From Halomonas chromatireducens (GTDB lineage: Bacteria; Pseudomonadota; Gammaproteobacteria; Pseudomonadales; Halomonadaceae): a stretch of DNA of 64,000 nt. The first letter of the stretch is position 1. Every line of letters starts with the position of its first letter. The stretch is from NCBI RefSeq assembly GCF_001545155.1, contig NZ_CP014226.1:2772387-2836386 (forward strand), given 5' to 3'. The notes under the pieces are model-generated. The model searched no databases. It was not told where the DNA came from and saw only the letters and a program-made list of their open reading frames with translations. Below, piece by piece: positions 10,213 to 46,148 of this stretch. A program made the position numbers and the translations under genes.

Positions 10213-10303
10213 CGCCGGGCTCGCGGGCTGGCGTTACTAGCCCCAGCCTGTGCTAGCATGATGTTGAGTATTTTCGACACTTGCTACTGCTACTGGAGCC
10301 CTC

Positions 10304-11590
10304 ATGCCCAGCCCTCGCTGCGACTCCTACTACACTGCAACGATTCACGAAGAGTCGAACTATCCGCAGCTCGCAGGTGATGTGACGGTCGACGTCGTCA
10401 TCGTCGGCGGCGGCTTCACCGGCGTGGCCACGGCAGTGGAGCTGGCCGAGCGGGGCTACCGGGTGGCCATCGTCGAGGCCAACAGGATCGGCTGGGGCGC
10501 CAGCGGTCGCAACGGCGGTCAGGTGACCGGCAGCCTCTCCGGCGAAGCGGCCATGCGCAAGCAGATGCGCCGCACCCTGGGCGAGGCCGCCGAGGACTTC
10601 GTCTGGGACCTGAGATGGCGCGGTCAGCGCATCATTCGCGAACGGGTCGATAAATATGCCATCCCATGCGATCTCAAGCAGGGGCATCTTCAGGCAGCCT
10701 GGAAGCCCTCTCACATGGCGGCGCTGCAGGCCGACTTCGAGGCCTGCCAGATCCGCGGCATGGGCGAGCACGTCGAGCTGCTGGATGCGAGTCAGGTCCG
10801 TGACGTGGTGCGCACCGAGTGCTACCACGGCGGCCTGCTCAACCGCTACAACCTGCACCTGCATCCGCTCAATCTGTGCCTGGGCGAAGCGCGGGTCGCC
10901 GAGAAGCTGGGTGCGAAGCTCTTCGAGCACTCACCCGTAACACGCATCGACCACGGCCCCTCTCCTGCGGTGGTAACCGAACATGGACCCGTGCGTGCCG
11001 ACCGGGTGCTGCTGGCGGGCAACGCCTATCACCGCCTGGAGCGACGCAGGCTGGGCGGCCGGCTGTTCCCGGCATCGCTTGGCATCGTCACCACCGCCCC
11101 GCTGGGTGGACTGGCCGACGCCATCAACCCCCAGGACCTGGCCGTCTACGACTGCCGCTTCGTGCTCGACTATTACCGTCTTACCGCCGACGGCCGGCTG
11201 CTGTTCGGCGGTGGCGCCAACTATTCAGGCAAAGACTCCCCCGACATCGCCGCCGAGCTGCGCCCGCGTCTGGAGGCCACCTTTCCCCAGCTCAAGGGCA
11301 CGCCGATCGACTACGCCTGGCAGGGCATGGCCGGCATCGTGGTCAATCGCATCCCCATGCTGGGCCGACTGTCCGACAACGTCTATTACGCCCAGGGCTA
11401 CTCGGGGCATGGTGTGGCCACCTCGCACATCGTCGGCGAGATCATGGCCAAGGCGATGGCGGGGCATATGGAGGAATTCGATACTTTCGCGGCCTGTCGC
11501 CACCTCAAGGTGCCGTTCGGGGATGCCCTTGGCAATCCGTTGCTGGCCGCGGGGATGTGGTATTACCAACTGCTGGAACGCTGGCGTTAA
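10304..11590 (+). CDS. FAD-dependent amine oxidase, PuuB-like (gamma-glutamylputrescine oxidase family)
   Basis: 428 residues, similar in size and order to E. coli PuuB (426). The Rossmann motif VVIVGGGFTG is at 31-40, then GWGASGRNGGQ, typical of the DAO family. HPLNLCLGEA, VLDYYRLTADGRLLFGGG and QGYSGHGV correspond closely to PuuB segments as I remember them. It would oxidise a secondary or gamma-glutamylated amine to an aldehyde, with release of the amine and H2O2. GGAG precedes the ATG at 10304. It is followed 40 bp later by an iron-type alcohol dehydrogenase that could reduce the aldehyde. No glutamylpolyamine synthetase or aldehyde dehydrogenase is present here, so the real substrate may differ. 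Confidence 0.85.
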   Translation: MPSPRCDSYYTATIHEESNYPQLAGDVTVDVVIVGGGFTGVATAVELAERGYRVAIVEANRIGWGASGRNGGQVTGSLSGEAAMRKQMRRTLGEAAEDFVWDLRWRGQRIIRERVDKYAIPCDLKQGHLQAAWKPSHMAALQADFEACQIRGMGEHVELLDASQVRDVVRTECYHGGLLNRYNLHLHPLNLCLGEARVAEKLGAKLFEHSPVTRIDHGPSPAVVTEHGPVRADRVLLAGNAYHRLERRRLGGRLFPASLGIVTTAPLGGLADAINPQDLAVYDCRFVLDYYRLTADGRLLFGGGANYSGKDSPDIAAELRPRLEATFPQLKGTPIDYAWQGMAGIVVNRIPMLGRLSDNVYYAQGYSGHGVATSHIVGEIMAKAMAGHMEEFDTFAACRHLKVPFGDALGNPLLAAGMWYYQLLERWR

Positions 11591-11630
11591 GCTATGCCTG
11601 AAACCCAATAACGAGAATCGTGAGCCTGCC

Positions 11631-12842
11631 ATGTCCGCATCCTTTCCCGAGCGCATCGACGACTTCCGTATCGCCCGCCTGCCGGATATCCAGTTCGGTG
11701 CAGGTAGCATCACGCGCCTGCCGGGGCTGATCGCCGAACATGGCAATCGCGTGCTGGTGGTAACCGGCAAGCGCTCCTTTGTCACTTCGCGCCACTGGAG
11801 CGAGCTGGTCGCTGCCCTCGTGAAGCAGGGCGCCGCCTGGCATCACGTCACCATCGAGGGTGAGCCCTCGCCGCAGCGAGTGGATGCCATCGTCAGCGAG
11901 CACCAAGAGAACGACATCGACGTGGTGGTCGCAATCGGCGGCGGCAGCGTGCTGGATGCCGCCAAGGCCGTCGCCGGCCTGCTACGCACCGGCGATTCGG
12001 TAATGGATCATCTCGAGGGCGTGGGCCGTGGTCTCCCCTACCGTGGCCCGGCGGTGCCGCTGATCGCCCTACCGACCACCGCCGGCACCGGCAGCGAAGC
12101 CACCAAGAACGCCGTGCTCAGCGTGCAGGGTGCAGATGGCTTCAAGAAATCGTTTCGCGATGAGCGTCTGGTCGCCGCCGTGGCGCTGGTCGACCCCGAA
12201 CTGCTGGCAGGCTGCCCCAAGGCGCAGATTGCCGCCAACGGCATGGATGCCTTTACCCAGTTGCTGGAATCCTACGTCTCGCTCAATGCCAGCCCCGCCA
12301 CCGACGCCCTGGCCTGGTCCGGCATGCAGGCGTTCTGTCGCGGCTTCTGGCCTGCCTGGGAAGAAGGCCACCCGGAGGCAAGCCGCGGCTACGGCCAGCT
12401 CGCCTACGCCTCGCTGATGTCCGGGGTGACCCTGGCCCAGGCGGGCCTGGGCTCGGTGCATGGACTGGCCTCCCCCCTGGGCGCCTTCTTCCCGATTCCC
12501 CACGGCACGGTGTGCGGCACCCTGGTCGCCGAGGCCACCGCGGCCAACGTCGCGGCGCTGCGCCTGCGCGAGCCGGGCAATCCGGCACTGGCCAGGTACG
12601 CCGAGGTCGGCCGCCTGCTCACAGGCAAGCACGAACTGAGCGATGGCGAAGCCTGCGATGCACTGGCCGCAACGCTACTCGATTGGACCCATCGCCTGGC
12701 GATGCCGAGACTGGGCGCCTACGGCATGACAAACGCGGATATCGAACGGGTGGTCGCCGGTGCCCGGGGCGGCAGCATGAAGACCAACCCGCTGGTACTC
12801 ACCGACGCCGAGCTGGGTGCCCTGCTGGAAACCCGCCTGTAG
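11631..12842 (+). CDS. iron-containing alcohol dehydrogenase family protein
   Basis: 403 residues, starting MSASFPERIDDF at 11631. The NAD-binding GGGSVLDAAKAV is near residue 105 and PTTAGTGSEAT is present, both family signatures. The usual metal site is Asp-His-His-His. Here the Asp is seen in GMDAFTQLLES, but the first His of the usual DAxTHxxE pattern is replaced by Gln. The later His residues are present in GLGSVHGLASP and PIPHGTVCG. Loss of one ligand may change metal choice or mean a different reaction. The gene follows the PuuB-like oxidase and is convergent with the acetylpolyamine amidohydrolase gene (6 bp apart). A role in handling the aldehyde made by the oxidase is inferred. Confidence 0.85.
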   Translation: MSASFPERIDDFRIARLPDIQFGAGSITRLPGLIAEHGNRVLVVTGKRSFVTSRHWSELVAALVKQGAAWHHVTIEGEPSPQRVDAIVSEHQENDIDVVVAIGGGSVLDAAKAVAGLLRTGDSVMDHLEGVGRGLPYRGPAVPLIALPTTAGTGSEATKNAVLSVQGADGFKKSFRDERLVAAVALVDPELLAGCPKAQIAANGMDAFTQLLESYVSLNASPATDALAWSGMQAFCRGFWPAWEEGHPEASRGYGQLAYASLMSGVTLAQAGLGSVHGLASPLGAFFPIPHGTVCGTLVAEATAANVAALRLREPGNPALARYAEVGRLLTGKHELSDGEACDALAATLLDWTHRLAMPRLGAYGMTNADIERVVAGARGGSMKTNPLVLTDAELGALLETRL

Positions 12843-12848
12843 CCAGGC

Positions 12849-13880
12849 TCAGGCGGTTTCGAAGCCGCTCAGCACATTGACCACGTTGATGCCGATCTCT
12901 TCCACCGCGTAGCCCCCTTCGAGCAGGAAGACGGTGGGCAGCCCAAGCTCGGCCAGGCGCCGGCCGATATCCGGGTAGTCCTCGCTTTTCAGTGTGAAGC
13001 TGCTGATCGGGTCGTGCTCGAAGGTGTCCACTCCCAGCGACACGACAAGCAGCTCGGCGCCGGACTGACCAATGCGCGCCAGACCTTCATCGAGGGCGGC
13101 CGACCAGCGGGCATAGCCGGTACCGGGCGGCATAGGGTAGTTGATATTGAAGCCCTCGCCCCGGCCGCTGCCGGTCTCATCGGCGTGCCCCAGGTAGTAG
13201 GGAAAGCAGTGCAGGGGATCGCCGTGCAGCGAAACGACGATCACGTCGTCACGGGAATAGAAGATTTCCTGGGTGCCGTTTCCATGGTGGAAGTCGATAT
13301 CCAGCACCGCTACCCGCGAGAGGCCATGCTTCAGGGCCTGATCGGCGGCAATGGCCGCGTTGTTGAAGAAGCAGTAGCCGCCGAACTGATCCGACGACGC
13401 ATGATGCCCCGGCGGGCGACACAGACCGAAGCTCGGCTCGCCGGTCTTGAGGGTATGGCCCAGCGCCGACAGGGCAATGTCCTTGCTGATATCGGCGGCT
13501 TCGAAGGTATTGGCACAGATCGAGGTCTCACCGGTCTGGGCGTAGTAGCCGAGCCGCCCCTCGATATGCTCGGGGACCCGTGTGCCGGGCATGGAGCGGG
13601 ACGGCCAGATGTTGGGGATCGCCTCGCCCGCCATGCCGATGGCTTTCCACTCCTCCCAGCAGCTGGCCAGGAACTCCACGTAGGCGGCATCATGCACAGC
13701 CAGTACGGGCTCGAGACCATAGCGAGTCGGTGCCTGAACCGCACCAAGCCCGGTCGCCCGCACCCGCTCTAGCACCAGGTCGACCCGCTCGGGGCACTCG
13801 AAGGGGGCGACCAGCAGCCCTTCGTTGAGCTCGGTCTTGGCACGACGCAGCTTGGTTGCCTCGCTGTGGAACGTGATCAT
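12849..13880 (-). CDS. acetylpolyamine amidohydrolase (class II histone deacetylase fold)
   Basis: 343 residues from the ATG at 13880 (MITFHSEATK), with GAGGAG 8 bp upstream; longer starts lack this. A zinc-dependent deacetylase fold: the His pair GHH at 159-160, zinc ligands Asp196 and His198 (DIDFHHG) and Asp285 (GVDTFEHD), and Tyr324 in EGGY. As I recall, these numbers are each one higher than those of the structurally known Mycoplana ramosa acetylpolyamine amidohydrolase (H158/H159, D195, H197, D284, Y323; 341 residues), which supports the subfamily. It would release acetate from acetylputrescine, acetylcadaverine or acetylspermidine. It is convergent with the alcohol dehydrogenase and upstream, on the same strand, of nothing obvious. 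It sits beside the LysR gene (109 bp) in an amine-catabolism island. Confidence 0.88.
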   Translation of the reverse strand: MITFHSEATKLRRAKTELNEGLLVAPFECPERVDLVLERVRATGLGAVQAPTRYGLEPVLAVHDAAYVEFLASCWEEWKAIGMAGEAIPNIWPSRSMPGTRVPEHIEGRLGYYAQTGETSICANTFEAADISKDIALSALGHTLKTGEPSFGLCRPPGHHASSDQFGGYCFFNNAAIAADQALKHGLSRVAVLDIDFHHGNGTQEIFYSRDDVIVVSLHGDPLHCFPYYLGHADETGSGRGEGFNINYPMPPGTGYARWSAALDEGLARIGQSGAELLVVSLGVDTFEHDPISSFTLKSEDYPDIGRRLAELGLPTVFLLEGGYAVEEIGINVVNVLSGFETA

Positions 13881-13989
13881 GACGACATCTCCTCGGGATG
13901 GTCCGCTTGACCTTGCCATGCCCATGGCCGGTGTACCAGCCCAGGCCCCTCAACGTCTGGGACGCAGCGGCAGGCGAGGACCAGGAATG

Positions 13990-14910
13990 CTAGGTCATGG
14001 ACTCACCGTAGCTCTCGAGCAGCACCCTGCCCCGCTGGCGAAGGAAGTCGAGCACCCTGGCCTGCTTCCAGTCGTTGCGATAGACCAGCCCGAAGCTGAA
14101 CGCCATGGCCGGCGAGAAAGGCCGCATGACCACCCCATCCCGGGGGGTGAGCTGGTCCTGGGCAGTAATCGGATTCATCACGGTAATGCCGACATGGCTG
14201 GCCACCAGCGCCGTGATGGTGCCGATATTGGCCTCCGTCTTGCCGGCGATCTGCACGCGATGCTGACTGGTCAGCTCCAGCAGTGGGTTGGTACTGATGC
14301 TCGGCTGGTTGCTGATCACCAGGTGCTGGTCGCGCAGATCCTCCACCTCGACACACCCCCTCATCGCCAGGGGATGCCGTTCTGGCACCAGGCAGACCGC
14401 CTCGGTGGTAAACCAGGGGTCCACCTGCAGCACCCGCGAGGTAATGGGCAGTGTAACGAAGCCGATGTCGGCATGGCTCGACTCCACGGCAAGTTGCACC
14501 TCATGGCTCGACATCATGTCTAGGCTGACGCTGAACTGCCGGTTCTCCTCCAGTAGCGCGGCCACCAGCCGGGGCACGAAGCCGAACGACAGCCCGGGAA
14601 TAGCGGCGATGCGCAGCCGCGATGTACCGAACTCCTTGAGCGCCAGCACGCTATGTCGCAGCTCCTCGATATTGCCCATCAGACGCAGGATCTCGTCATA
14701 GACCTCCCGCGCTTCCGGGGTCGCCACCAGGCGATTCTTCTCTCGCAGGAACAGCTGGATTCCCAGGTTTTCCTCAAGTTGCGCCAGTGAGCGACTCACC
14801 CCCGACTGGGTGATCCCAAGCGTGCGTGCCGCCTGGGAAGCGGTACCCGCTTCATACAGTGTCTTGAAGATCGCCAGCGACTTGAGCGAGTGGATGTTGA
14901 CATCAGCCAT
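13990..14910 (-). CDS. LysR family transcriptional regulator of the aminotransferase operon
   Basis: 306 residues. The N-terminal helix-turn-helix is clear (LAIFKTLYEAGTASQAARTL, then ITQSGVSRSLAQLEENLG). The effector domain runs from about residue 93 (RLRIAAIPGLSFGFVPRLV) to the end. It is transcribed divergently from the aminotransferase gene with 110 bp between the starts. That is the classic layout for a LysR activator of the neighbouring operon. ATCGAATTCGAT lies in the gap and is a candidate binding site. By position it probably senses the substrate or an intermediate of the acetyl-beta-lysine-like pathway (inference). Confidence 0.9.
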   Translation of the reverse strand: MADVNIHSLKSLAIFKTLYEAGTASQAARTLGITQSGVSRSLAQLEENLGIQLFLREKNRLVATPEAREVYDEILRLMGNIEELRHSVLALKEFGTSRLRIAAIPGLSFGFVPRLVAALLEENRQFSVSLDMMSSHEVQLAVESSHADIGFVTLPITSRVLQVDPWFTTEAVCLVPERHPLAMRGCVEVEDLRDQHLVISNQPSISTNPLLELTSQHRVQIAGKTEANIGTITALVASHVGITVMNPITAQDQLTPRDGVVMRPFSPAMAFSFGLVYRNDWKQARVLDFLRQRGRVLLESYGESMT

Positions 14911-14921
14911 GACTGCAACTC

Positions 14922-14933
14922 ATCGAATTCGAT
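14922..14933. promoter_or_regulatory. candidate LysR operator between divergent genes
   Basis: ATCGAATTCGAT is a perfect 12 bp palindrome of the T-N11-A kind recognised by LysR regulators. It lies 12 bp upstream of the LysR start and about 88 bp upstream of the aminotransferase start. An AT-rich stretch (TCATATATTGAAATAC) follows and probably holds the promoters. Confidence 0.5.
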
Positions 14934-15020
14934 AAAAAGATCATATATTGAAATACTTGTCGATCGCTACTTAGACTGCAGAGACCCGTTTACAAACACA
15001 TAACGACAACGGACGCTGCA

Positions 15021-16373
15021 ATGGACCCATCTCCCCTTTTCTACCAGGCCGGTCCGGCCCTGCCCGAAGTCAGTCATGCCCGGGGCGTCTATCTGTGGGA
15101 CGAAGCCGGACGGGAATATCTCGACGGCTGCTCCGGCGCCATTTCCTGCAACCTGGGGCATGGTCGCCCTGACATCCGGGATGCCATGCTCGCCCAGCTC
15201 GACCGGGTGGCCTTCACCTATCGCACCCAGTTTGAAAATGCTCCCGCAGTGGCCCTGGCCAAGGCCCTGGTCGGCTTGACGCACGATCAACTGCAAAAAG
15301 TCTTCTTCGTCTCCAGCGGCTCGGAGGCGGTTGAATCGGCGCTCAAGCTGGCACGCCAGTACTTCGTTGCCTCGGGTGAACCAGAGCGGCGCCGCTTCGT
15401 CTCCCTTCGCCCCTCCTATCATGGCAGCACCCTGGGGGCACTGGGCGTAACGGGCTATCAGCCGTTGGAAGCGCCCTTCACCGACATCACCATCGGCTCG
15501 CTCAAGGTGGCCGGCCCCGACTTCTATCGCCATGCCGATGCTGACGACACCCTGCATGTGGAGCGCATCCTCGCCGAGACCCGCGCTGCCATGGAAGCGG
15601 CCGATCCCGACACCATCGCGGCCTTTATCCTTGAGCCCGTGGGCGGCGCCAGCACTGGTGCCCGAATGCTCGGGCAGGCCTATCTCGAGCGCATTCGTGC
15701 CCTGTGTGACGAGTTCGGCTGCCTGCTGATCCTCGATGAAGTACTGACCGGCGTCGGTCGTACCGGCACCTGGTTCGCCTATCAGCACTATGGCGTCACA
15801 CCGGACCTACTGGCCACCGCCAAGGGGCTTGGCGCCGGCTACTACCCGGTGGGGGCGGTACTCGCCCGCGCCGACATCGTCGAAGCCGTCATGGGCTCTG
15901 GCGGCTTCCAGCACGGGCATACCTACGCCGGCAATCCACTCGCCTGTGCCACCGCGCTGGCGGTGGTGGAAGCCATACAGCGCGAAGGCGTACTCAGCAA
16001 CGTGGCCGCACGCGGCTGCGAACTGGAGGCTGGACTCGAGGCACTCAAGGCCCGCTTCGCCTGGGTGGGCGACGTTCGTGGCCTGGGGCTGCTTTGGGGG
16101 GTGGAGCTGGTCGCCGACAGCGATACCAAGGCGCCTTTCCCCGCCGAGCAGAACCGTTTTGCACGGATAACGGCGCTGGCCAAGGAGGAAGGCCTGCTGA
16201 TCTATCCGCGACGCACCCTGGATGGCGTTGCGGGCGACCATTTCCTGGTCACCCCGCCACTGACCATCGACGCCGCTGATACGGCCGAGCTGCTCGCCCG
16301 GCTCGAGCGTGCCATGGTGCGCTTCGACCATGAGTTGAGCGCGGCGGCGCCAGCAAATGCACTGACCCCCTGA
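15021..16373 (+). CDS. class III aminotransferase, candidate N6-acetyl-beta-lysine transaminase (YodT-like)
   Basis: 450 residues, PLP-dependent fold I, class III. SSGSEAVESALKLARQY at about 98-114 binds the cofactor phosphate. Asp239 in LILDEVLTGVGRTG contacts the pyridine ring, and Lys268 in TAKGLGAGYYPVGA forms the Schiff base. HGHTYAGNPLAC completes the family pattern. It is the first gene of an operon with both CoA-transferase subunits, an M20 deacylase and a thiolase. The same set without the thiolase occurs in Bacillus as yodT-yodS-yodR-yodQ beside kamA (lysine 2,3-aminomutase). That context points to removal of the 3-amino group of N6-acetyl-beta-lysine, giving 3-oxo-6-acetamidohexanoate (EC 2.6.1.65). 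Other omega- or beta-amino acids remain possible. Confidence 0.82.
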   Translation: MDPSPLFYQAGPALPEVSHARGVYLWDEAGREYLDGCSGAISCNLGHGRPDIRDAMLAQLDRVAFTYRTQFENAPAVALAKALVGLTHDQLQKVFFVSSGSEAVESALKLARQYFVASGEPERRRFVSLRPSYHGSTLGALGVTGYQPLEAPFTDITIGSLKVAGPDFYRHADADDTLHVERILAETRAAMEAADPDTIAAFILEPVGGASTGARMLGQAYLERIRALCDEFGCLLILDEVLTGVGRTGTWFAYQHYGVTPDLLATAKGLGAGYYPVGAVLARADIVEAVMGSGGFQHGHTYAGNPLACATALAVVEAIQREGVLSNVAARGCELEAGLEALKARFAWVGDVRGLGLLWGVELVADSDTKAPFPAEQNRFARITALAKEEGLLIYPRRTLDGVAGDHFLVTPPLTIDAADTAELLARLERAMVRFDHELSAAAPANALTP

Positions 16374-16397
16374 TCGCCAAATGGAAAAGGCTCTTTC

Positions 16398-17099
16398 ATG
16401 ACGCTACTCAACCAGAAATATTGCCTCATCGAGGAGGCCATAGCCGCTATCCCGGATGGCGCCTCGATCATGATCGGCGGGTTCGGCTCACCGGGCACGC
16501 CCTTCGCCCTGATCGACGAACTGCTGGACCAGGGCCAGCGCGATCTCACCCTGATAAAGAACGATGCCAATGAACCTGGGATCGGCATCAGCAAGCTGAT
16601 CGAGGCCGGCCGCGTCAGCCGCCTGATTACCTCGCACATCGGACTCAATCGAGTGGCCATCGAGGCAATGAACCGGGGCGAGCTCCATGTAGCGATGCAC
16701 CCCCAGGGGCTGCTGGCAGAAAAGATACGCAGCGCCGGGGCCGGTCACCACGGCTTTCTCACCGACATCGGTCAGGGCACAGAGATTGCTGCCGGCCGCC
16801 GTGAAATCGAAATGGACGGCCGCAGATGGGGCATCGAGCCGGCACTCTATGCCGACTTCGCCCTGGTCCACGCCGAGCGCGCCGACCGCTATGGCAACCT
16901 GATCTACCGCGCCACCGCGAGCAATTTCAACCCGCTGATGGCCATGGCCGCCGATATCGTCATCGCCCAGGCCTACCGGGTCGACGAACCCGGCAGCCTG
17001 CCACTCGAAGCGGTCCATACCCCCTGCGCCTTCGTCAGCCAGGTGGTCCAGGTCGCTCCCGCCACCAGCGAACAGGGGAGGCGCGCCCATGTCGGCTGA
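16398..17099 (+). CDS. CoA transferase, alpha subunit (YodS/AtoD type)
   Basis: 233 residues, family I CoA-transferase subunit A. IMIGGFGSPGTPFALIDEL near the N-terminus and TDIGQGTEIAAG in the middle are typical of AtoD/ScoA/PcaI proteins. It would pair with the next gene to move CoA from acetyl-CoA or succinyl-CoA to a 3-oxoacid. In this operon the expected acceptor is 3-oxo-6-acetamidohexanoate, activated for cleavage by the thiolase two genes on. It starts 24 bp after the aminotransferase gene (AAAAGG upstream), and its last 11 bp overlap the beta subunit, so the subunits are coupled. Confidence 0.9.
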   Translation: MTLLNQKYCLIEEAIAAIPDGASIMIGGFGSPGTPFALIDELLDQGQRDLTLIKNDANEPGIGISKLIEAGRVSRLITSHIGLNRVAIEAMNRGELHVAMHPQGLLAEKIRSAGAGHHGFLTDIGQGTEIAAGRREIEMDGRRWGIEPALYADFALVHAERADRYGNLIYRATASNFNPLMAMAADIVIAQAYRVDEPGSLPLEAVHTPCAFVSQVVQVAPATSEQGRRAHVG

Positions 17100-17742
17100 T
17101 CAGCAACGCATACTCGCTCGCGCCGCTCGGGAAGTGATACCGGGCCAGATCGTCAACCTGGGCATTGGCCTGCCCACCCGGCTGTTTCACTACCTGCCGG
17201 ACGAAATGGAAGTGCTGGTGCATTCGGAGAACGGCGTGCTGGGCTCTCGCCCGCGCAAGGACGGCGAGTCACCAGACTACGACATGATCGACTCCGGGGG
17301 CGCCTACATCGCTACCCGCCCCGGCGCCAGCGTATTCGACAGTGCCATTTCCTTCGCCATGATCCGTCGCAGTCGGGTAGACCTCACTTTCATGGGTGCC
17401 TTCGAAGTGGATGAGCTTGGCAACCTGGCCAATTGGAAGATACCCGGCAAGTTCTCGCCGGGCATCGGCGGCGCCATGGAACTGGCACAGAAGGTCAAGC
17501 GCCTGGTGATCCTCTGCTCGCACAACGACAAGCACGGCAAGCCCAAGATCCTGCAGCGTTGTCGTCTCCCGCTCACCGCCGAGCACTGCGTGTCACGCAT
17601 CATCACCGACAAGGCGGTGATGGACGTGACCCCGGAAGGTCTTGCCGTGGTGGATATCGCCGAGGGGCTTGGCATTGATGAGCTGCGTGGGGCCACCGAA
17701 GCCAACTTGATTATCGACGAGCGTCGACTGGGGAGGTTCTGA
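17089..17742 (+). CDS. CoA transferase, beta subunit (YodR/AtoA type)
   Basis: 217 residues, family I CoA-transferase subunit B. The catalytic Glu is Glu47 in HSENGVLG, the conserved S-E-N-G motif that forms the glutamyl-CoA intermediate. NLGIGLPT precedes it and MGAFEVDELGNLANW follows, all typical. Its start lies inside the alpha-subunit gene (11 bp overlap) and its TGA overlaps the ATG of the deacylase by one base. Such tight packing means equimolar expression of the pathway enzymes. The acceptor acid is not visible from sequence; the neighbouring thiolase shows that it is a 3-oxoacid. Confidence 0.92.
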   Translation: MSADQQRILARAAREVIPGQIVNLGIGLPTRLFHYLPDEMEVLVHSENGVLGSRPRKDGESPDYDMIDSGGAYIATRPGASVFDSAISFAMIRRSRVDLTFMGAFEVDELGNLANWKIPGKFSPGIGGAMELAQKVKRLVILCSHNDKHGKPKILQRCRLPLTAEHCVSRIITDKAVMDVTPEGLAVVDIAEGLGIDELRGATEANLIIDERRLGRF

Positions 17743-19025
17743 TGCTGACCACCACCGAGAAGCGCATCGTCGAGCGCTGCGAGGCGCTGATGGACGACAC
17801 CCTGGCGCTGACCCGCGACCTGGTGCGCGGCTACAGCGTACTGGGCGAGGAGCATGGCGCGCTCGCGACCATGGAACGCTGGTTCGAGCGTCTCGAGCTG
17901 CCGGCCACCCGGGTACCGCTTGACGCCCCCGGCTTCGCCGAGCACCCTCACCGCGCTCCAACCGAGTGGTCGTGCGACGGACGCTACAACCTGGTGTCCC
18001 GGCTCAACGCCGGCGCCAGCGGGCCACATCTGGTCTTCAATGGCCACCTGGACGTAGTGCCCGCCGAACCCCTCGACATGTGGACCCGACCGCCCTGGGA
18101 ACCCTGGGAGAAGGACGGCTGGCTCTATGGCCGTGGCGCCGGCGACATGAAGGCCGGCATCGCCGCCATGGTCATGGCCGTGCAGGCGGTACGCCAGGCC
18201 GGCGTTCCCATCGACTTTCCCCTGTCCCTGCAGACAGTGATCGAGGAGGAGTGTACCGGCAACGGCGCACTGGCCTGCCTGCACCAGGGGTATAGCGGTG
18301 ACTTCGTGCTGATTCCGGAACCCTTCGGCAGCCAGATCTATGCTGGCCAGGTGGGCGTACTCTGGTTTCGCATGCGCATCGACGGCGTGCCGGCCCACGT
18401 GCTCGACACCCGCGCCGGCAGCAACGCTATCGAAACGCTGATCGAGTACCTGCCCGCCTTCAAGGCGCTGGAGAACGAGATCAACGCGCTGCCGCGTCAG
18501 GCGCCCTACGACAGCCTGGATAGCCCCTTCAATCTCAGCATCGGCAAGATCGAGGGCGGCAACTGGGCATCCAGCGTGCCGGCCCATGCCGTGCTCGAAG
18601 GCCGCGTAGGGTTTCCGCCCGGCATGACGCCCGATGAAGCCATGAACCGCGTTCGCCGGTGCATCGAGTCTCGCCATACCGAACTCGCCGATGGCAGCCC
18701 CGCCCCCCGGGTGGAATTCCACGGCTTCCGCTCAGAGGGCTTTCTGGTCGACCTCGAAACGCCAGGTATCGAACTCCTCTCCCGCTGCCATCAGGACCTG
18801 CTCGGTGAGCCACCGAGGACCTATCTCTCCACCTGCACCACCGACCTGCGCGCCTTCCACGTCAGCGGCGAAATCAATGGCACCTGCTACGGCCCGGTGG
18901 CCCAGCGGATCCACGGCGTCGACGAGTGCGTGGAGATCGACTCGATTCGACACGTTCTCACCACCTATGCCCTGTTCATTCACCGCTGGGGAGAGCTAGC
19001 CGGTGCCGGAGGAAACACAACATGA
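17742..19025 (+). CDS. M20 family deacylase, candidate 4-acetamidobutyryl-CoA deacetylase (YodQ-like)
   Basis: 427 residues, di-zinc M20 peptidase/ArgE-DapE fold. His102 in NGHLDVVPAE, Asp135 in GRGAGDMKAG, the catalytic Glu pair at 168-169 in VIEEECTGNG, then IPEP and a late His in RIHGVDE supply the metal site. The dimerisation domain lies in between (about 220-320). The gene overlaps both neighbours (1 bp with the CoA transferase, 4 bp with the thiolase). In Pseudomonas B4 an enzyme with deacetylase and thioesterase activity converts 4-acetamidobutyryl-CoA to 4-aminobutyrate (EC 3.5.1.51). This gene is a good candidate for that step. Direct deacetylation of the imported substrate is the alternative. 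Confidence 0.82.
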   Translation: MLTTTEKRIVERCEALMDDTLALTRDLVRGYSVLGEEHGALATMERWFERLELPATRVPLDAPGFAEHPHRAPTEWSCDGRYNLVSRLNAGASGPHLVFNGHLDVVPAEPLDMWTRPPWEPWEKDGWLYGRGAGDMKAGIAAMVMAVQAVRQAGVPIDFPLSLQTVIEEECTGNGALACLHQGYSGDFVLIPEPFGSQIYAGQVGVLWFRMRIDGVPAHVLDTRAGSNAIETLIEYLPAFKALENEINALPRQAPYDSLDSPFNLSIGKIEGGNWASSVPAHAVLEGRVGFPPGMTPDEAMNRVRRCIESRHTELADGSPAPRVEFHGFRSEGFLVDLETPGIELLSRCHQDLLGEPPRTYLSTCTTDLRAFHVSGEINGTCYGPVAQRIHGVDECVEIDSIRHVLTTYALFIHRWGELAGAGGNTT

Positions 19026-20212
19026 AAGAAGTCTACCTGGCCGACTACGCCCGCAGCGCCTTTACCCGCGCCCACCCACGCAAGCCCGAAGTGGACGGCT
19101 GGGCCGGGACTCGCGGCGATGCCCTGCTTGCCTTGGTAATTGATGCCCTGCTCGACCGTAGCGGTATCGACCCGCAGGTCGTGGAAGACCTAAGCGTCGG
19201 CTGCGCGCTGCCGGTCAAGGAGCAGTGGAATTTTGGCGGCCGCTACCCGCTTTGGCTTTCTCAGCGCCTGGGTCCGCATAACCATCAATGCGCCACCCGT
19301 CAGATCGATCAACAGTGTGGCTCGGGGCTTGCTGCCCTGCGCAGCGCCGCCCGCGAGATACAGGCAGGCGCCGTGGACGTGGCTATCACCGGGGGCTTCG
19401 AGAACATGACCCGGGTACCCATGGGCCCCGCCCTGTTCAAGGAAGGGGTACTGACTTCACCCGAGGCGCTGAAGGATGCCGAATGGCTCGAGCTCGAGGT
19501 GGCGCTGAACATGGGCATCACCGCCGAACGCCTGGCCCAGGGGGCCGGTATCGAGCGTGATGAAATGGATGCATTCGCGCTGGAGTCCCACCGCCGTGCT
19601 GCCCGGGCCGAGGCCGACAGCCATCTCGCCGGCGAACGACTTACGCTGACCAACCCAGCCGGGGAGGTCATCGACCGGGACGCCAATATCCGCCCCGATA
19701 CCAACCTGGAAAGGCTCGCCGGACTCGATCCGGTCTTCCTCGAAGGCGGCCGGGTCACCGCCGGCAACAGCTCGCCGCTCACCAGCGGTGCCGCTGCGTC
19801 AGTCGTGATGTCCGCAGCTGCTCTCGAGCGCCATGGTGCCAAGCCGTTGGCCCGTATTGTCGCCATCGCCGACGTGGGTGTGCGCCCCGGACTCATGGGC
19901 GCCGGGGCCGCTGCGGCGGCGGAACAGGTGCTGGCGCGTGCCGGGCTGGTCGCCTCACAGATCGATGCCTGGGAGATCAACGAGGCCTTTGCCGCCGTAC
20001 CGCTACATGCCATGCGCAAGCTCGGACTGGACCCAGGCCGAGTCAACGTCTGGGGCGGCGCCCTCGCCCTGGGGCACCCCCTTGGGGCGACCGGCATACG
20101 CCTGGCCGGCACTCTGGCACGGATACTCGCCCATCGCGGCGGCCGCTACGGCTGTGCCACCGCTTGTGTGGGCGGAGGACAAGGGATTGCGGTGATTCTC
20201 GAGCGGCTATAA
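19022..20212 (+). CDS. thiolase (acetyl-CoA C-acyltransferase)
   Basis: 396 residues, degradative thiolase. The nucleophile is Cys99 in DQQCGSGLAAL, the NEAF motif is in EINEAFAAV, His352 is in LGHPLGATG, and the second catalytic Cys is Cys382 in CATACVGGG. The N-terminal part is about 10 residues longer than usual before Cys99, so the substrate may be atypical. The ATG overlaps the deacylase stop (ATGA). It ends the operon; the importer genes follow after 170 bp. In the proposed route it splits 3-oxo-6-acetamidohexanoyl-CoA into acetyl-CoA and 4-acetamidobutyryl-CoA. The Bacillus yod cluster lacks this gene as far as I recall, so its presence here completes the pathway. Confidence 0.9.
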   Translation: MKEVYLADYARSAFTRAHPRKPEVDGWAGTRGDALLALVIDALLDRSGIDPQVVEDLSVGCALPVKEQWNFGGRYPLWLSQRLGPHNHQCATRQIDQQCGSGLAALRSAAREIQAGAVDVAITGGFENMTRVPMGPALFKEGVLTSPEALKDAEWLELEVALNMGITAERLAQGAGIERDEMDAFALESHRRAARAEADSHLAGERLTLTNPAGEVIDRDANIRPDTNLERLAGLDPVFLEGGRVTAGNSSPLTSGAAASVVMSAAALERHGAKPLARIVAIADVGVRPGLMGAGAAAAAEQVLARAGLVASQIDAWEINEAFAAVPLHAMRKLGLDPGRVNVWGGALALGHPLGATGIRLAGTLARILAHRGGRYGCATACVGGGQGIAVILERL

Positions 20213-20382: not shown

Positions 20383-21186
20383 ATGACAATTCACAAGAAG
20401 TCCTTCCATCGTCCTCTTATTGGCGCCTTGACGCTACTTGGGGTTATTTCCTTTGCCAGCATGAGCGCCCAGGCGCGAGATTTTTCCGAGATTCAGGCCG
20501 ACGTCTTTCAGGTGGCCAACTCTGGCGCCTACCCCCCCTTCAGCTATGTCGATACCGCCGGGAACCTTGTCGGCTTCGACGTGGATATCGCCGAAGCGCT
20601 GGCAGACAGGATGGGAGTCGACGTCAATATCCAGACATCGCCGTGGAACGGCATCGTCGCCGCTCTGGCAGGCGGCCGCTTCGACGCTTGCATCTGCAGC
20701 ATGAGCGTCACGGAAGAGCGTGAGCGCGCCGTCGACTTCACCGACAGCTATTACAGCTCGGGGCTCTCCATCTGGGTCAGGCAAGAGACCGATGACGTCA
20801 ACAGCATCGAAGACTTCGCCGGCAAGCGGGTGGGTTCAACCCTGGGTGAAACGGGCAACCAATGGGCCACCGAAAACAGCAACGGAAACTGGCGCAACCA
20901 GACATTCCAGGGCTTGCCCGACATGCTTAACGGGCTCACCACCGGACGAATCGACGTCATGATCGCCGATGACATCCCCGTTTACGTGGCGCTCAATGAT
21001 CAGGAACTCCCCATCAAGCAGGTCGAAGTCGGGGAGCTACCCAGTTGGCCTGCCGCCATTGCCATTCAGAAGAACAAGCCTGAGCTGAAAGAGGCCCTGA
21101 ACACGGCACTGGCCGAGATCAGGGAAGATGGTACCTACCAGGCAATCGTCGACAAATGGATCGGCGAAGGCGTCGAGTTCGACTAG
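20383..21186 (+). CDS. ABC transporter substrate-binding protein, polar amino acid family
   Basis: 267 residues, family 3 periplasmic binding protein. The signal peptide ends at about residue 30 (ASMSAQA). GAYPPFSYVDTAGNLVGFDVDIAEAL is the family signature (about residues 45-70). SVTEERERAVDFTDSYY carries the Arg that usually binds a substrate carboxylate. DVMIADDIPVYVAL has the Asp that usually binds the amino group. A good ribosome-binding site (AAAAGGAA) precedes the ATG. It is the first gene of a four-gene importer directly after the thiolase operon. The substrate is probably the amino acid that operon degrades. A perfect hairpin follows its stop. Confidence 0.9.
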   Translation: MTIHKKSFHRPLIGALTLLGVISFASMSAQARDFSEIQADVFQVANSGAYPPFSYVDTAGNLVGFDVDIAEALADRMGVDVNIQTSPWNGIVAALAGGRFDACICSMSVTEERERAVDFTDSYYSSGLSIWVRQETDDVNSIEDFAGKRVGSTLGETGNQWATENSNGNWRNQTFQGLPDMLNGLTTGRIDVMIADDIPVYVALNDQELPIKQVEVGELPSWPAAIAIQKNKPELKEALNTALAEIREDGTYQAIVDKWIGEGVEFD

Positions 21187-21196
21187 ACAGCCCTGG

Positions 21197-21224
21197 GGCC
21201 AGCAGGGCGAAAGCCCTGCTGGCC
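21197..21224 (+). promoter_or_regulatory. strong intercistronic hairpin (12 bp stem, GAAA loop)
   Basis: GGCCAGCAGGGC, the tetraloop GAAA and the exact complement form a perfect stem 10 bp after the stop of the binding-protein gene. It is followed by TTAAAC rather than a clear U-run. It probably acts as a partial terminator or an mRNA stabiliser, giving more binding protein than permease, as known in other ABC importer operons. Confidence 0.75.
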
Positions 21225-21264
21225 TTAAACAACGTCGCTACACAACAATTGAGTAAAGGGGCTC

Positions 21265-21921
21265 ATGGACATCAACTTGATGATCGAAATATCGCCGCTG
21301 TTGGTAAAAGCGGCCTGGGTGACCATCGACATATCGGTTCGCGCCCTGTTCTTCGGCTTCTTTATCGCCTCCACGCTGGTGGCATTGCGAAGCTCACGAA
21401 TTTCCCCCGTCCGCTGGCTGGCACGCGCTTATATCAGTGTCGTTCGCGGTACACCCTATTTCGTCCAGCTGCTGCTGGTCTTCTACGGCGGACCCGCAAT
21501 AGGTCTTCACCTGGACCCATTCACCTGCGGCGTGGTCGTCGGCGCCTTCAACATCGGCGCCTATATGAGCGAGGCCATTCGCGGTGCCCTCGAATCGGTC
21601 GAAAGCGGGCAGAACGAGGCATCACGATCGCTGGGATTTGGACGCTTTGCGACGCTTCAACACATTATCCTGCCCCAGGCAGCCAGCCTCATGATTCGCT
21701 CCATCGGCGTCCTGGCCATCATTTTGGTAAAGAACTCATCGCTGGTATCCATCATTTCGGTGGTCGAGCTGACCTATCAGGCTCAGCGCCTGATCGGCTC
21801 AACCTACAGGCCCTTGGAAGTCTTTTTACTGAGTGCCCTGATGTATATCGTCATCATCTATGCGGTCATGGGCATTGTTGAGTTCTTATATCGTCGCGCC
21901 ACGCGATATACCTATCTATAG
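21265..21921 (+). CDS. ABC transporter permease, polar amino acid family (HisM/GlnP type)
   Basis: 218 residues with about five membrane helices. The cytoplasmic EAA loop is visible in ALESVESGQNEASRSLGFGRFATLQHIILPQA (within residues 111-142). The N-terminal AWVTIDISVRALFFGF matches the start of His/Glu/Gln-type permeases. It would form a heterodimer with the next gene product and be driven by the ATPase encoded after it. It follows the hairpin by 40 bp. Base composition is somewhat more AT-rich than in the catabolic operon. Confidence 0.9.
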   Translation: MDINLMIEISPLLVKAAWVTIDISVRALFFGFFIASTLVALRSSRISPVRWLARAYISVVRGTPYFVQLLLVFYGGPAIGLHLDPFTCGVVVGAFNIGAYMSEAIRGALESVESGQNEASRSLGFGRFATLQHIILPQAASLMIRSIGVLAIILVKNSSLVSIISVVELTYQAQRLIGSTYRPLEVFLLSALMYIVIIYAVMGIVEFLYRRATRYTYL

Positions 21922-21983
21922 AAAACCAGGCAACAGAAAAACCTATGGAACACCAGGCAACAGAGCAACCAAGGTAAGCCGCC

Positions 21984-22637
21984 ATGGAATTCGATTTCAG
22001 CCCCGTCATCACCTATTTCCCGACCCTCATCAAGGGTATAGGAGCCACACTTCTGATTGGCCTGGTGGTCGCCATCATGTCGATCATCGGCGGACAGATC
22101 GTCGCCGTAATCACCCTGTACACAAGAAAAATTGTTAACTGGCCGCTGCGCCTCCTTATCTGGTTATTCATGACAACGCCGCTGCTGCTTCAACTTTATT
22201 TCCTGTATTTTGGCATCGGGCAATGGATATTGATCCCGGCCATCGCGGTAGGCGTTCTCGGCCTCGGATTTCACTATATGGCCTACAACGCGGACATATT
22301 CATCGCCACCATCAAGTCAGTATCAAGTGGTCAGTATGAAGCGTCGCGTTCATTGGGATTTAGCCATATCGCCACCATATTTTACATCATCCTGCCGCAG
22401 GCGCTCTATCGCGCCACCCCCCAGCTCGGCAATAACATGATCATCATGGTAAAGGATATATCGGTGCTCTCCGCCATCGGTATCGCCGAGCTGGTGTACC
22501 TTTCACAGTATGCCATCAGCGTGACGTTTCGCCCCTTCGAGTTCTATATCACGATCGCTGTCATTTACTACTTGATCAACGTACTGATGGAAATCGGACA
22601 ATCCTGGATAGAGCGCCGCGCCGCCTACCGCCGCTAG
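21984..22637 (+). CDS. ABC transporter permease, polar amino acid family, second subunit
   Basis: 217 residues with about five membrane helices. The EAA loop is SVSSGQYEASRSLGFSHIATIFYIILPQA. It is similar in layout to the preceding permease, as expected for a heterodimeric His/Gln-type importer. It begins 62 bp after the first permease and ends 23 bp before the ATPase gene. The third position of codons is more AT-rich than in nearby genes (for example TTTATTTCCTGTATTTTGGC), which may reflect membrane-protein codon use or a separate origin. Confidence 0.9.
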   Translation: MEFDFSPVITYFPTLIKGIGATLLIGLVVAIMSIIGGQIVAVITLYTRKIVNWPLRLLIWLFMTTPLLLQLYFLYFGIGQWILIPAIAVGVLGLGFHYMAYNADIFIATIKSVSSGQYEASRSLGFSHIATIFYIILPQALYRATPQLGNNMIIMVKDISVLSAIGIAELVYLSQYAISVTFRPFEFYITIAVIYYLINVLMEIGQSWIERRAAYRR

Positions 22638-22660
22638 CCCTTCCCTAACGAGGACCTGAC

Positions 22661-23452
22661 ATGACACACGCGAAAGACACGCCCATGGTGGAGCTAAAGG
22701 GAGTCAAGAAACGATTCGGTGACCTTGAGGTACTCAAGGGGATCGACCTCAAGGTCGAACGCGGCAAGATCATATCCATCATCGGACCATCAGGGTCCGG
22801 AAAAAGCACGCTGCTACGATCCATCAATAACCTGGAAGTGATCGATGAGGGCAGCATCCTGCTGGATGGCATGCAGGTCAACCGGCCAGACTTGAAGGGA
22901 CTGGCCTTCGAGCGCCATATCAACCATATACGCCAGAACATGGGCATGGTATTCCAGCACTTCAATCTGTTCCCTCACCTTTCGACGCTGGAGAACGTGA
23001 CGCTTGCACCGAGAAAGCTGAAAGGCATGGATGCGAAAAGTGCCCGTGAGCTGGGCATGGAGCTACTCGAGCGAGTGGGGCTGGCGGACAAGGCCTCCGT
23101 CTACCCCAGCGCCCTGTCGGGCGGGCAGAAACAGCGCGTCGCCATTGCCCGCGCCCTGGCCATGCGCCCCAAGGTCATGCTCTTCGACGAAGCCACATCG
23201 GCCCTGGATCCGGAGCTTGTGGAGGAAGTAAACCAGGTGATGAAGGGGCTAGCCGAGGAGCACATGACTATGCTCATCGTCACCCATGAGATGGGCTTTG
23301 CACGTGACGTCTCTGATTGGGCAATGTTCATGGACGGCGGCGTCGTAGTGGAATCGAACACCCCCGACCACTTGTTCTCCCACCCTGACGAGGAGCGCAC
23401 CCGCAACTTCTTGCGCAAGCACCTGGGGGCACAGACGCAAGGGCAAGCTTGA
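22661..23452 (+). CDS. ABC transporter ATP-binding protein, polar amino acid family
   Basis: 263 residues. Walker [10 protein letters not shown] at 42-50, signature LSGGQKQR, Walker [14 protein letters not shown], then the switch His in [11 protein letters not shown], all typical of GlnQ/HisP. It powers the importer encoded just upstream. AACGAGGA precedes the ATG. A bidirectional terminator hairpin follows the gene, which closes the catabolic island at about 23.5 kb. Confidence 0.95.
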
Positions 23453-23515: not shown

Positions 23516-23541
23516 AGGAGGCCATAGGCCTCCTCTCTTGT
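23516..23541. terminator. bidirectional terminator between importer and convergent small gene
   Basis: AGGAGGCC-ATA-GGCCTCCT (23516-23534) forms an 8 bp stem. TCTCTTGTAT follows on the plus strand and TCTTCGCTTTT on the minus strand. It lies between two convergent genes. Confidence 0.75.
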
Positions 23542-24170: not shown

Positions 24171-24402
24171 ACTGCACGACATCTACTGCATGAACTAGTC
24201 TAGTAAGACAGCCTGGTGAGCAGTGCCGAACTCGGCGTGGCATCAATGGCTTGCCGAGTGCGGATGCACTATACCAGCGGCCAGGCAGGCCAGCAAGCGC
24301 GGGCTCTCGCTATTGGACCCGACCATGCTAAGCGTTGACGATTCGTGTAGGGTAAATGGGAAAACGACGACGAAAAACACGACATCGCTCAGGAGGCGTA
24401 CT

Positions 24403-45567: not shown

Positions 45568-45642
45568 TGGAGCGGGAAAGGAGATTCGAACTCCCGACCC
45601 TCGCCTTGGCAAGGCGATGCTCTACCACTGAGCTATTCCCGC
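45568..45642 (-). tRNA. tRNA-Gly (GCC), copy 1
   Basis: 75 nt with CCA: acceptor GCGGGAA/TTCCCGC, anticodon loop TTGCCAA, T loop GAGTTCGAATCTC. It is the last tRNA of the cluster in transcript order and runs directly into the repeat array. All three copies are identical. Confidence 0.97.
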
Positions 45643-45674
45643 TTATCGGTATTGCCTGGATACATCAGACTGTA

Positions 45675-45750
45675 TGGCGTCCCATAGGGGGTTCGAACCC
45701 CTGTTCCCGCCGTGAAAGGGCGGTGTCCTAGGCCACTAGACGAATGGGAC
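45675..45750 (-). tRNA. tRNA-Glu (TTC), copy 1
   Basis: 76 nt with CCA: acceptor GTCCCAT/ATGGGAC, anticodon loop CTTTCAC, T loop GGTTCGAACCC. Its D-arm region reads GTGGCCTAGGAC, whereas the other two copies read GTGGTCCAGGAC, a compensated double change. Confidence 0.97.
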
Positions 45751-45754
45751 GAAC

Positions 45755-45829: not shown

Positions 45830-45871
45830 TTGTCTGACAGTCTAAGCTATCGGTAACGCATACTGGAAGAG

Positions 45872-46125: not shown

Positions 46126-46148
46126 ACTCCGCAACCTGACAAAACGAG

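What the first reader, a model, noticed from the sequence alone, without database searches (positions are those of the whole stretch)
15021..20212. Five-gene operon that matches the N6-acetyl-beta-lysine degradation route
The gene order aminotransferase, CoA-transferase A, CoA-transferase B, M20 deacylase, thiolase maps one-to-one on reactions described biochemically in Pseudomonas B4: N6-acetyl-beta-lysine transamination (EC 2.6.1.65), CoA activation of 3-oxo-6-acetamidohexanoate, thiolysis, and 4-acetamidobutyryl-CoA deacetylation (EC 3.5.1.51), ending in 4-aminobutyrate. Four of the genes also recall Bacillus yodT-S-R-Q beside kamA. As far as I know, EC 2.6.1.65 and 3.5.1.51 lack firmly assigned genes. 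Here neither a lysine 2,3-aminomutase nor an acetyltransferase is present, so the substrate would be imported ready-made: N-acetyl-beta-lysine is a known osmolyte of methanogens and some salt-stressed bacteria. Overlaps of 11, 1 and 4 bp show tight co-expression. The assignment is inference; the families are clear.
Basis: partly seen in the sequence, partly recalled or inferred. Interest (0 to 1): 0.9.

Follow-up and report, generated by a model that had tools for sequence, protein, structure and literature searches.

The report
Probable acetyl-beta-lysine import-and-breakdown operon
A salt-loving bacterium carries a set of genes that looks built to take up an acetylated beta-amino acid, most likely the salt-protectant N-acetyl-beta-lysine made by other microbes, and break it down for food, which would give genes to steps known so far mainly as chemistry.

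Summary
The five genes are where stated, intact, with the stated overlaps. They belong to a larger unit: a divergent LysR regulator plus an acetylpolyamine-amidohydrolase-type deacetylase upstream, and an amino-acid-type ABC importer (four genes) downstream. Relatives in several proteobacterial families and in Thermodesulfobacteriota keep the unit; in seven loci the importer sits between aminotransferase and CoA-transferase. No lysine 2,3-aminomutase or AblB was found within 8 kb in 88 contexts, and AblB is absent from this genome, so import fits. The strongest evidence on chemistry is gene replacement: in 7 of 88 contexts a beta-keto-acid cleavage enzyme (BKACE) stands in for CoA-transferase plus thiolase, never together with them; five of these have the HDAC-type deacetylase without M20. 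So the aminotransferase most likely makes a beta-keto acid from a beta-amino acid that carries an amide. Bacillus operons with the same order (AT-CoTA-CoTB-M20) joined to ablB-ablA tie this chemistry to N6-acetyl-beta-lysine, but the Bacillus aminotransferase is a cousin, not an ortholog, so the substrate stays inferred (about 0.6). Verdict: observation confirmed, interpretation partly supported; a new importer-coupled variant of a known pathway, with candidate genes and clear tests.

The parts
12849..13925 (-). HDAC-fold deacetylase, acetylpolyamine-amidohydrolase type (358 aa), second gene of the divergent LysR unit
   Evidence: Pfam Hist_deacetyl 1.4e-66; best PDB relatives acetylpolyamine amidohydrolases 6phr 9.6e-118 and 3q9b 1.2e-114; a homologue within 8 kb of AT in 41 of 88 contexts
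13990..14910 (-). LysR-family regulator (306 aa), divergent from the operon
   Evidence: Pfam HTH_1 and LysR_substrate; its cluster covers 71 of the 88 sources compared, second copies of four genomes included
14922..14977 (+). conserved promoter/operator stretch: ATCATATATTGAAATA at 14940-14955, -35-like TTGAAA at 14948, -10-like TAGACT ending at 14977
   Evidence: 16-mer exact in 18 of 22 spacers aligned (window plus 21 of the 80 loci, chosen by me), one mismatch in L050, absent as such in L068, L071, L073; promoter-like site, (number of such sites not above chance)
15021..16373 (+). class-III aminotransferase (AT), proposed N6-acetyl-beta-lysine aminotransferase
   Evidence: Pfam Aminotran_3 7.4e-99; best NCBIfam PRK07483 457 bits, below its cut-off of 485, then PRK06917 398 of 535; K268 and D239 invariant in 24 sequences
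16398..17099 (+). CoA-transferase subunit A
   Evidence: TIGR02429 216.9 bits over cut-off 128.5
17089..17742 (+). CoA-transferase subunit B, with the SENG motif (motif recalled)
   Evidence: TIGR02428 256.8 bits over cut-off 243.55; sequence
17742..19025 (+). M20 deacylase, proposed omega-acetamido-acid (4-acetamidobutyrate or its CoA ester) deacetylase
   Evidence: PRK06837 399 bits over cut-off 376; H102, D104, D135, E169, E170, E193, H391 invariant in 22 sequences (their role as di-zinc site is recalled)
19022..20212 (+). thiolase
   Evidence: TIGR01930 365.9 bits over cut-off 240.55; pcaF model only 256.8 against 597
20383..21186 (+). periplasmic amino-acid-type substrate-binding protein of the importer
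   Evidence: TIGR01096 167 bits, below cut-off 256; R113 in 64 of 64 and D196 in 63 of 64 contexts with this protein, window included
21265..21921 (+). ABC permease 1
   Evidence: EhuC 173.6 bits, below cut-off 197
21984..22637 (+). ABC permease 2
   Evidence: EhuD 128 bits, below cut-off 205
22661..23452 (+). ABC ATPase
   Evidence: EhuA 327.8 bits, below cut-off 345
23516..23534 (+). possible terminator after the importer; none was listed between thiolase and importer
   Evidence: 5 sites found, 5.2 expected in shuffles, so weak

Best explanation
A catabolic unit, probably LysR-controlled, imports a zwitterionic, N-acylated beta-amino acid, most likely N6-acetyl-beta-lysine shed by other salt-stressed microbes, and degrades it. 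Proposed route: (1) the ABC importer brings it in; (2) the aminotransferase turns the 3-amino group into a 3-keto group (3-oxo-6-acetamidohexanoate); (3) the CoA-transferase makes the CoA ester; (4) the thiolase splits it to acetyl-CoA and 4-acetamidobutyryl-CoA; (5) the M20 enzyme, with or beside the divergent HDAC-type deacetylase, removes the acetyl group to give 4-aminobutyrate, which the genome's GABA aminotransferase can use. The acetyl group probably acts as a protecting group: without it 6-amino-3-oxohexanoate would close to a five-membered ring. Shown by sequence: the genes, their families, their linkage, the replacement by BKACE in relatives. Inferred: the substrate, the order of steps, which deacetylase acts when, the CoA donor and the regulation.
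For: Conserved linkage: 66 of 80 genome-contig loci have all five genes within 8 kb. Full importer set near the AT in 63 of 88 contexts; placed between AT and CoTA in L068, L080, L082, L093, L094, L098, L099. BKACE, which acts on beta-keto acids, in 7 of 88 contexts, never with CoTA, CoTB or thiolase; three of these BKACEs were scanned and all three pass an equivalog cut-off of the BKACE family. Two Rhodobacterales plasmids keep the same flanks (ABC importer before, amidohydrolase and alanine racemase after) with CoTA-CoTB-M20-Thl in one and BKACE-HDAC in the other. A deacylase (M20 or HDAC) is near in 83 of 88. Bacillus velezensis and Cytobacillus plasmids: AT-CoTA-CoTB-M20-ablB-ablA; the Bacillus AT has the window AT as by far its best match in this genome, 323 against 194 bits; the Bacillus M20 joins the system M20s apart from other M20s of relatives (SH-aLRT 96, quick method). 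A GABA aminotransferase is present (L113, TIGR00700 516 over 506.65). AblB is absent here and not found in 398 sampled genomes of the phylum, own included. N-acetyl-beta-lysine is a known osmolyte (PMC1224877, passages).
Against: The Bacillus kamA-linked ATs group with three ATs of other contexts (99/95), not with the window's clade, so the substrate cannot be carried over by orthology. CoTA of Bacillus did not join the system CoTAs (it fell with other paralogs, SH-aLRT 87), and its best-match margin in this genome is small (176.7 against 162.6 bits). The BKACEs are curated by NCBIfam as 3,5-dioxohexanoate enzymes. The M20 family also occurs without the AT cluster: L175 has M20 and HDAC with an aldehyde dehydrogenase and a TPP enzyme, L174 an 80% identical M20 alone. 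L084 and L086 have AT, importer and HDAC but neither CoA-transferase nor BKACE within 8 kb (L090 too, with short flanks). Eight contexts with CoTA had no thiolase caught, five of them with full flanks (L065, L077, L078, L081, L095). L017, L090, L091, L092 and L095 have no M20 or HDAC near. 24 of 88 lack the full importer set or its binding protein near. HDAC relatives with structures are named polyamine deacetylases. No ligand or activity data.
Confidence: 0.6

Rival explanations
1. Same chemistry, different substrate: another imported N-acyl beta-amino acid (for instance an acylated beta-ornithine, beta-arginine or a beta-amino acid with an amide side chain such as beta-glutamine).
For: The evidence from BKACE replacement, deacylases and importer fixes only a beta-keto acid and an amide; AT relatives with an annotated BKACE-type gene nearby occur in other contexts too (L126, L129).
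Against: The only linkage found to enzymes of known product is ablA-ablB in Bacillus, which make N6-acetyl-beta-lysine; two unrelated deacetylase families of acetyl-amine type favour an acetyl group on an amine.
Confidence: 0.22
2. The physiological substrate is free beta-lysine, acetylated inside the cell before breakdown.
For: A GNAT acetyltransferase gene lies near the AT in 7 of 88 contexts; the four compared with each other are 29-42% identical. Four of the seven are BKACE loci, three with the order AT-BKACE-GNAT-HDAC.
Against: No such GNAT was found near the window AT or in the Halomonadaceae loci examined, and AblB is absent, so for the window itself an already acetylated substrate fits better.
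Confidence: 0.08
3. Part of ectoine breakdown, given the EhuACD-like importer and a halophile host.
For: Importer permease 1 and ATPase score close to, but below, the ectoine importer cut-offs.
Against: The genome has its own ectoine hydrolase at C1:485651-486838, 2.3 Mb away on the contig (657.5 bits over cut-off 613); CoA-transferase, thiolase or BKACE have no place in that route (recalled); the binding protein scores only 76.7 against 190.9 for EhuB.
Confidence: 0.04
4. Acetylpolyamine breakdown: the HDAC-type enzyme and AT handle acetylated putrescine or cadaverine and the CoA genes serve an unrelated fatty or keto acid.
For: Closest structures to the HDAC-type enzyme are acetylpolyamine amidohydrolases; L018 has an SBP_bac_8 binding protein beside an ABC ATPase instead of the amino-acid type.
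Against: Polyamine routes need an aldehyde dehydrogenase (recalled), none is among the ten genes scanned at 9505-20212; beta-keto-acid enzymes of two unrelated kinds in the same place would be unexplained.
Confidence: 0.06

Closest known systems
N6-acetyl-beta-lysine degradation of Pseudomonas B4 (EC 2.6.1.65, 3.5.1.51; recalled, no paper seen)
   Same: Each proposed step has a gene of the right enzyme class in one operon.
   Different: Known there as biochemistry from lysine; here no AblA-type lysine aminomutase or AblB is present and an importer is added.
Bacillus yodTSRQ-ablB-ablA (kamA) operon
   Same: Identical order AT, CoTA, CoTB, M20 in two plasmid loci; 38-42, 43-47, 42-44 and 30-32% identity to the window proteins.
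   Different: There ablB-ablA follow and no thiolase or importer is annotated in the run; the AT falls in another clade. In B. subtilis yodT is listed under SigE with function unknown (PMC6522883, passages).
BKACE / 3-keto-5-aminohexanoate cleavage route
   Same: Same intermediate class, a beta-keto acid; BKACE replaces CoA-transferase and thiolase in 7 of 88 contexts.
   Different: No BKACE in the window's unit. The seven BKACEs have no acidic residue in the N-terminal stretch TCAVTGS(V/I)(H/Y)TP(T/S)MS, where Kce uses Glu14 to read the free 5-amino group (PMC10470551, passages; my placing of Glu14 is recalled).
Ectoine importer Ehu and Doe pathway
   Same: Importer family resemblance, salt-related substrate.
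   Different: Below all Ehu cut-offs; the genome's ectoine hydrolase is elsewhere.

Membership tests
N6-acetyl-beta-lysine degradation pathway (Pseudomonas B4 type) | Enzyme classes for transamination, CoA activation, thiolysis, amide hydrolysis together | tested here: met
N6-acetyl-beta-lysine degradation pathway (Pseudomonas B4 type) | AT product is a beta-keto acid | tested here: inconclusive
   indirect: BKACE replaces CoA-transferase and thiolase in 7 of 88 contexts, never together
N6-acetyl-beta-lysine degradation pathway (Pseudomonas B4 type) | Activity on N6-acetyl-beta-lysine and on 4-acetamidobutyryl-CoA | not testable with these tools
   needs enzyme assays
Bacillus yodTSRQ-ablBA operon | Order AT-CoTA-CoTB-M20 | tested here: met
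Bacillus yodTSRQ-ablBA operon | ablB and ablA present | tested here: not met
   none caught within 8 kb in 88 contexts, 13 of them with short flanks; AblB absent from the genome; its KamA-family proteins are an EpmB-type one and a 462-aa relative below all cut-offs
Bacillus yodTSRQ-ablBA operon | AT and M20 belong to the same NCBIfam families (PRK06917, PRK06915) | tested here: not met
   AT 398 of 535 bits, M20 226 of 428 bits needed. The window AT is nearest PRK07483 but also under its cut-off (457 of 485); the window M20 passes PRK06837. The Bacillus AT and M20 have PRK07483 and PRK06837 among their next-best models
Ectoine degradation (Ehu/Doe) | Ehu subunits over cut-off, ectoine hydrolase in the cluster | tested here: not met
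3-oxoadipate branch (PcaIJ-PcaF) | Thiolase is PcaF | tested here: not met
   256.8 of 597 bits
Acetylpolyamine amidohydrolase | HDAC fold, closest to solved acetylpolyamine amidohydrolases | tested here: met
Acetylpolyamine amidohydrolase | Activity on acetylated polyamines | not testable with these tools
   needs assays

The most novel reading that the evidence does not exclude
A so far unnamed, importer-coupled 'protect, cleave, deprotect' module feeds on N-acetyl-beta-lysine (or beta-lysine) released by other microbes. It exists in two chemistries, CoA-transferase plus thiolase or BKACE, and with two unrelated deacetylases, M20 or HDAC type, that can replace each other at the same spot; a GNAT-bearing form accepts free beta-lysine by adding the acetyl group itself.
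Probability: 0.4. Interest if true: 0.75.

Novelty: new variant of a known kind. Interest (0 to 1): 0.6.

Why it matters
It offers concrete gene candidates for two enzyme activities described only biochemically (as recalled), a candidate importer for an osmolyte of methanogens, and a reason why halophiles and sulfate-reducer relatives would carry it: eating a salt protectant of their neighbours. It also gives a working hypothesis for the unassigned Bacillus sporulation gene yodT and its neighbours. The swap of two C-C cleaving chemistries and two deacetylases in one locus is a clean test case for reading substrates from gene replacement.

Tried and rejected
Looked for ablB in the same phylum to find a direct proteobacterial link to N-acetyl-beta-lysine synthesis: none at E 1e-30 in 398 genomes, own included; 3 of 14 control genomes ring. 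Tested whether the Bacillus AT, CoTA and M20 share a clade with the window's: AT no (99/95 for another place), CoTA no but weakly, M20 sister. The AT and M20 trees carry warnings on long branches. Paper searches gave no gene assignment for this pathway; the held library is open-access only, so this does not show that nothing is in print. Searches gave papers used for the osmolyte, AblB and Kce facts. Ectoine, PcaIJF and polyamine readings were considered and set low. The label 'ATP-grasp' that I gave by eye to 24310-25626 was not supported by Pfam or NCBIfam. The 12-bp palindrome in the LysR spacer was not found in the 21 relatives looked at; the neighbouring 16-mer was. No structure prediction was run.

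Rows dropped: of 96 contexts, 8 were left out of the counts: the two Bacillus loci and six plasmid ATs (L123, L124, L125, L126, L128, L129) that lie outside the window's AT clade. [quoted passage not shown] The 88 rows include many Halomonadaceae and near-duplicates (for example L066 and L067); 13 of 88 have less than 7.5 kb on one side of the AT. Only 34 of the 88 were in the AT tree. Of the 194 plasmid records with an AT match I opened 11. The 80 genome loci are the best of 417.


Full report
What is there. The window lies in a one-contig 3.97-Mb genome of the Halomonas/Billgrantia group: its same-genus relative G391 has a contig of the same length (96,043) as that of Billgrantia desiderata FB2, and the closest named proteins are from Halomonas and Billgrantia. 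The five genes are at the stated coordinates, with overlaps of 11, 1 and 4 bp. Families: class-III aminotransferase, CoA-transferase A and B, M20 deacylase, thiolase. Residues recalled as catalytic are in place and invariant in the alignments made (AT K268 and D239 in 24 sequences; M20 H102, D104, D135, E169, E170, E193, H391 in 22 sequences).

The unit is bigger than the finding. On the minus strand, LysR (13990-14910) and an HDAC-fold deacetylase (12849-13925) form a divergent pair. The deacetylase is closest to solved acetylpolyamine amidohydrolases. On the plus strand, 170 bp after the thiolase, come a periplasmic binding protein, two permeases and an ATPase (20383-23452). The spacer between LysR and the aminotransferase holds a 16-base element, ATCATATATTGAAATA, exact in 18 of 22 spacers that I aligned, the window and 21 of the 80 loci, overlapping a promoter-like site.

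Relatives. One scan of the genome collection with an aminotransferase alignment kept the best 80 of 417 relatives. Of 88 contexts counted as the system: CoTA and CoTB within 8 kb in 78; these plus thiolase in 70; plus M20 in 68; the full amino-acid-type importer in 63; M20 or HDAC in 83, both in 30; lysine 2,3-aminomutase 0; AblB 0. Thirteen of the 88 have less than 7.5 kb on one side. In Marinobacterium (L068, L080), an Alcaligenaceae bacterium (L082), Desulfosediminicola (L093), Desulfopila (L094) and two MAGs (L098, L099) the importer genes lie between aminotransferase and CoA-transferase. In an ORF cluster of 17 sources, two of them second copies of the same genome (L015 and L040, L016 and L052), another gene family recurs; the one member scanned (L015) is a NhaC-family antiporter after the thiolase, in a locus without the importer. 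The aminotransferase is patchy: 5 of 121 genomes of the family, own genome included, at E 1e-120, and 3 of 274 of the class, own included.

Gene replacement. Seven of the 88 (L017, L018, L089, L107, L121, L122, L127) have a BKACE gene near the aminotransferase and none of the seven has CoTA, CoTB or thiolase. BKACE enzymes act on beta-keto acids. Six of the seven have the HDAC-type deacetylase; one of these six (L018) also has M20; L017 has neither. Two Rhodobacterales plasmids show the swap between the same flanks: L108 is ABC-AT-CoTA-CoTB-M20-Thl-amidohydrolase-alanine racemase; L121 is ABC-LysR-AT-BKACE-HDAC-amidohydrolase-alanine racemase. In Phyllobacterium, Shinella and Pararhizobium a GNAT acetyltransferase sits between BKACE and HDAC. 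In the tree both types lie inside one well-supported group of aminotransferases (34 rows, 100/98), with BKACE rows needing three changes. From this I conclude that the aminotransferase makes a beta-keto acid, hence acts on a beta-amino acid, and that an amide must be removed. Against a too narrow reading: the three BKACEs scanned belong to a family that NCBIfam curates for 3,5-dioxohexanoate (532.6, 478.2 and 523.4 bits against 430). None of the seven has an acidic residue in the N-terminal stretch TCAVTGS(V/I)(H/Y)TP(T/S)MS, where the Kce enzyme has Glu14 for the free 5-amino group (PMC10470551, passages seen); my placing of Glu14 in that stretch is recalled. This fits a neutral, acetylated side chain but does not prove it.

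Link to N6-acetyl-beta-lysine. Plasmids of Bacillus velezensis (L103) and Cytobacillus spongiae (L104) carry AT-CoTA-CoTB-M20-ablB-ablA in one run. AblA and AblB make N-acetyl-beta-lysine in methanogens (passage citing that work in PMC3543383), and ablA clusters with ablB in several bacteria (PMC2821294, passages). The window proteins are 42, 47, 44 and 30% identical to those of L103, and the L103 aminotransferase has the window's as its best match in this genome, 323 against 194 bits; for CoTA the margin is small, 176.7 against 162.6. The trees temper this: the Bacillus aminotransferases group with L123-L125 (99/95), outside the window's clade; the Bacillus CoTA falls with other paralogs, weakly (SH-aLRT 87); the Bacillus M20s are in one branch with the system M20s (SH-aLRT 96, quick method) apart from other M20s of relatives. 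So the Bacillus operon is a cousin of the same design, and substrate identity is an inference from design.

Source of the substrate. AblB is absent here and was not found in 398 sampled genomes of the phylum, own included, while 3 of 14 control genomes ring. The genome's KamA-family proteins are an EpmB-type one, next to a gene that by eye is efp, and a 462-aa protein at C1:2446408-2447445 that scores 105 bits where the lysine aminomutase model needs 525. Import is therefore the simplest reading. The binding protein keeps R113 (64 of 64 contexts with it, window included) and D196 (63 of 64), which I equate from recall with the residues that hold the carboxylate and ammonium in lysine/arginine/ornithine-binding protein. 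N-epsilon-acetyl-beta-lysine as an osmolyte of methanogens is documented in PMC1224877 (passages). A GABA aminotransferase for the end product is present (L113, over the TIGR00700 cut-off, under those of other GABA-aminotransferase models).

Limits. Nothing here measures a substrate. The M20 family also occurs outside the unit (L174, L175); in L175 it sits with HDAC, aldehyde dehydrogenase and a TPP enzyme, which could be another route that ends in an omega-acetamido acid. L084 and L086 (and L090, short flanks) lack both CoA-transferase and BKACE nearby; eight contexts with CoTA had no thiolase caught, five of them with full flanks; L017, L090, L091, L092 and L095 had no M20 or HDAC nearby. 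Whether the deacetylation is on 4-acetamidobutyryl-CoA or on the free acid, and what the second deacetylase does in the window, is open. The idea that the product CoA ester donates its CoA to the next substrate molecule is speculation.

Novelty. Paper searches in the held open-access library found no paper with 4-acetamidobutyryl-CoA or the named enzymes and none with five phrases on beta-lysine degradation, catabolism or utilization; yodT is listed as of unknown function in PMC6522883 (passages). The pathway type is known (recalled), so I file this as a new variant: importer-fed, without synthesis genes, with interchangeable cleavage and deacetylation parts.

Noticed in passing
L005:1228-2616 (G000:C1:2446408-2447445): A 462-aa KamA-family radical-SAM-like protein far below all aminomutase cut-offs (141 bits of 199 for the family model), with no Pfam match at 1e-5, between a protein that looks like a TAXI-type binding protein and a macro-domain-like protein (both by eye).
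   Followed up: partly
window 24310-25626 and 25671-27719: Two reading frames (438 and 682 aa) after the importer with no Pfam match at 1e-5 (the first also none in NCBIfam at 1e-10); matched parts are 77-100% identical in a number of Halomonadaceae loci next to the same unit.
   Followed up: partly
window 45568-46224: Three alternating tRNA-Gly(gcc)/tRNA-Glu(ttc) pairs in a row.
   Followed up: no
L175 8198-10559: HDAC-type deacetylase and an M20 61% identical to the window's, next to an aldehyde dehydrogenase and a TPP-dependent enzyme, no AT cluster: perhaps another route through omega-acetamido acids.
   Followed up: partly
L097 6984-7862 and L099 4678-5529: A creatininase-family gene between the binding protein and the permeases of the importer.
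   Followed up: no
L108 14174-16449 and L121 11355-13641: An M20 amidohydrolase plus alanine racemase follow both the CoA-transferase and the BKACE form of the unit.
   Followed up: no
window 10304-12842: FAD oxidoreductase (DAO) and iron alcohol dehydrogenase genes lie upstream, mainly in close relatives; a DAO gene also occurs beside the HDAC gene in L084, L085 and L086.
   Followed up: partly
L103: The Bacillus ablA-ablB operon with a spore gene (cgeC) sits on an 89-kb plasmid record.
   Followed up: no
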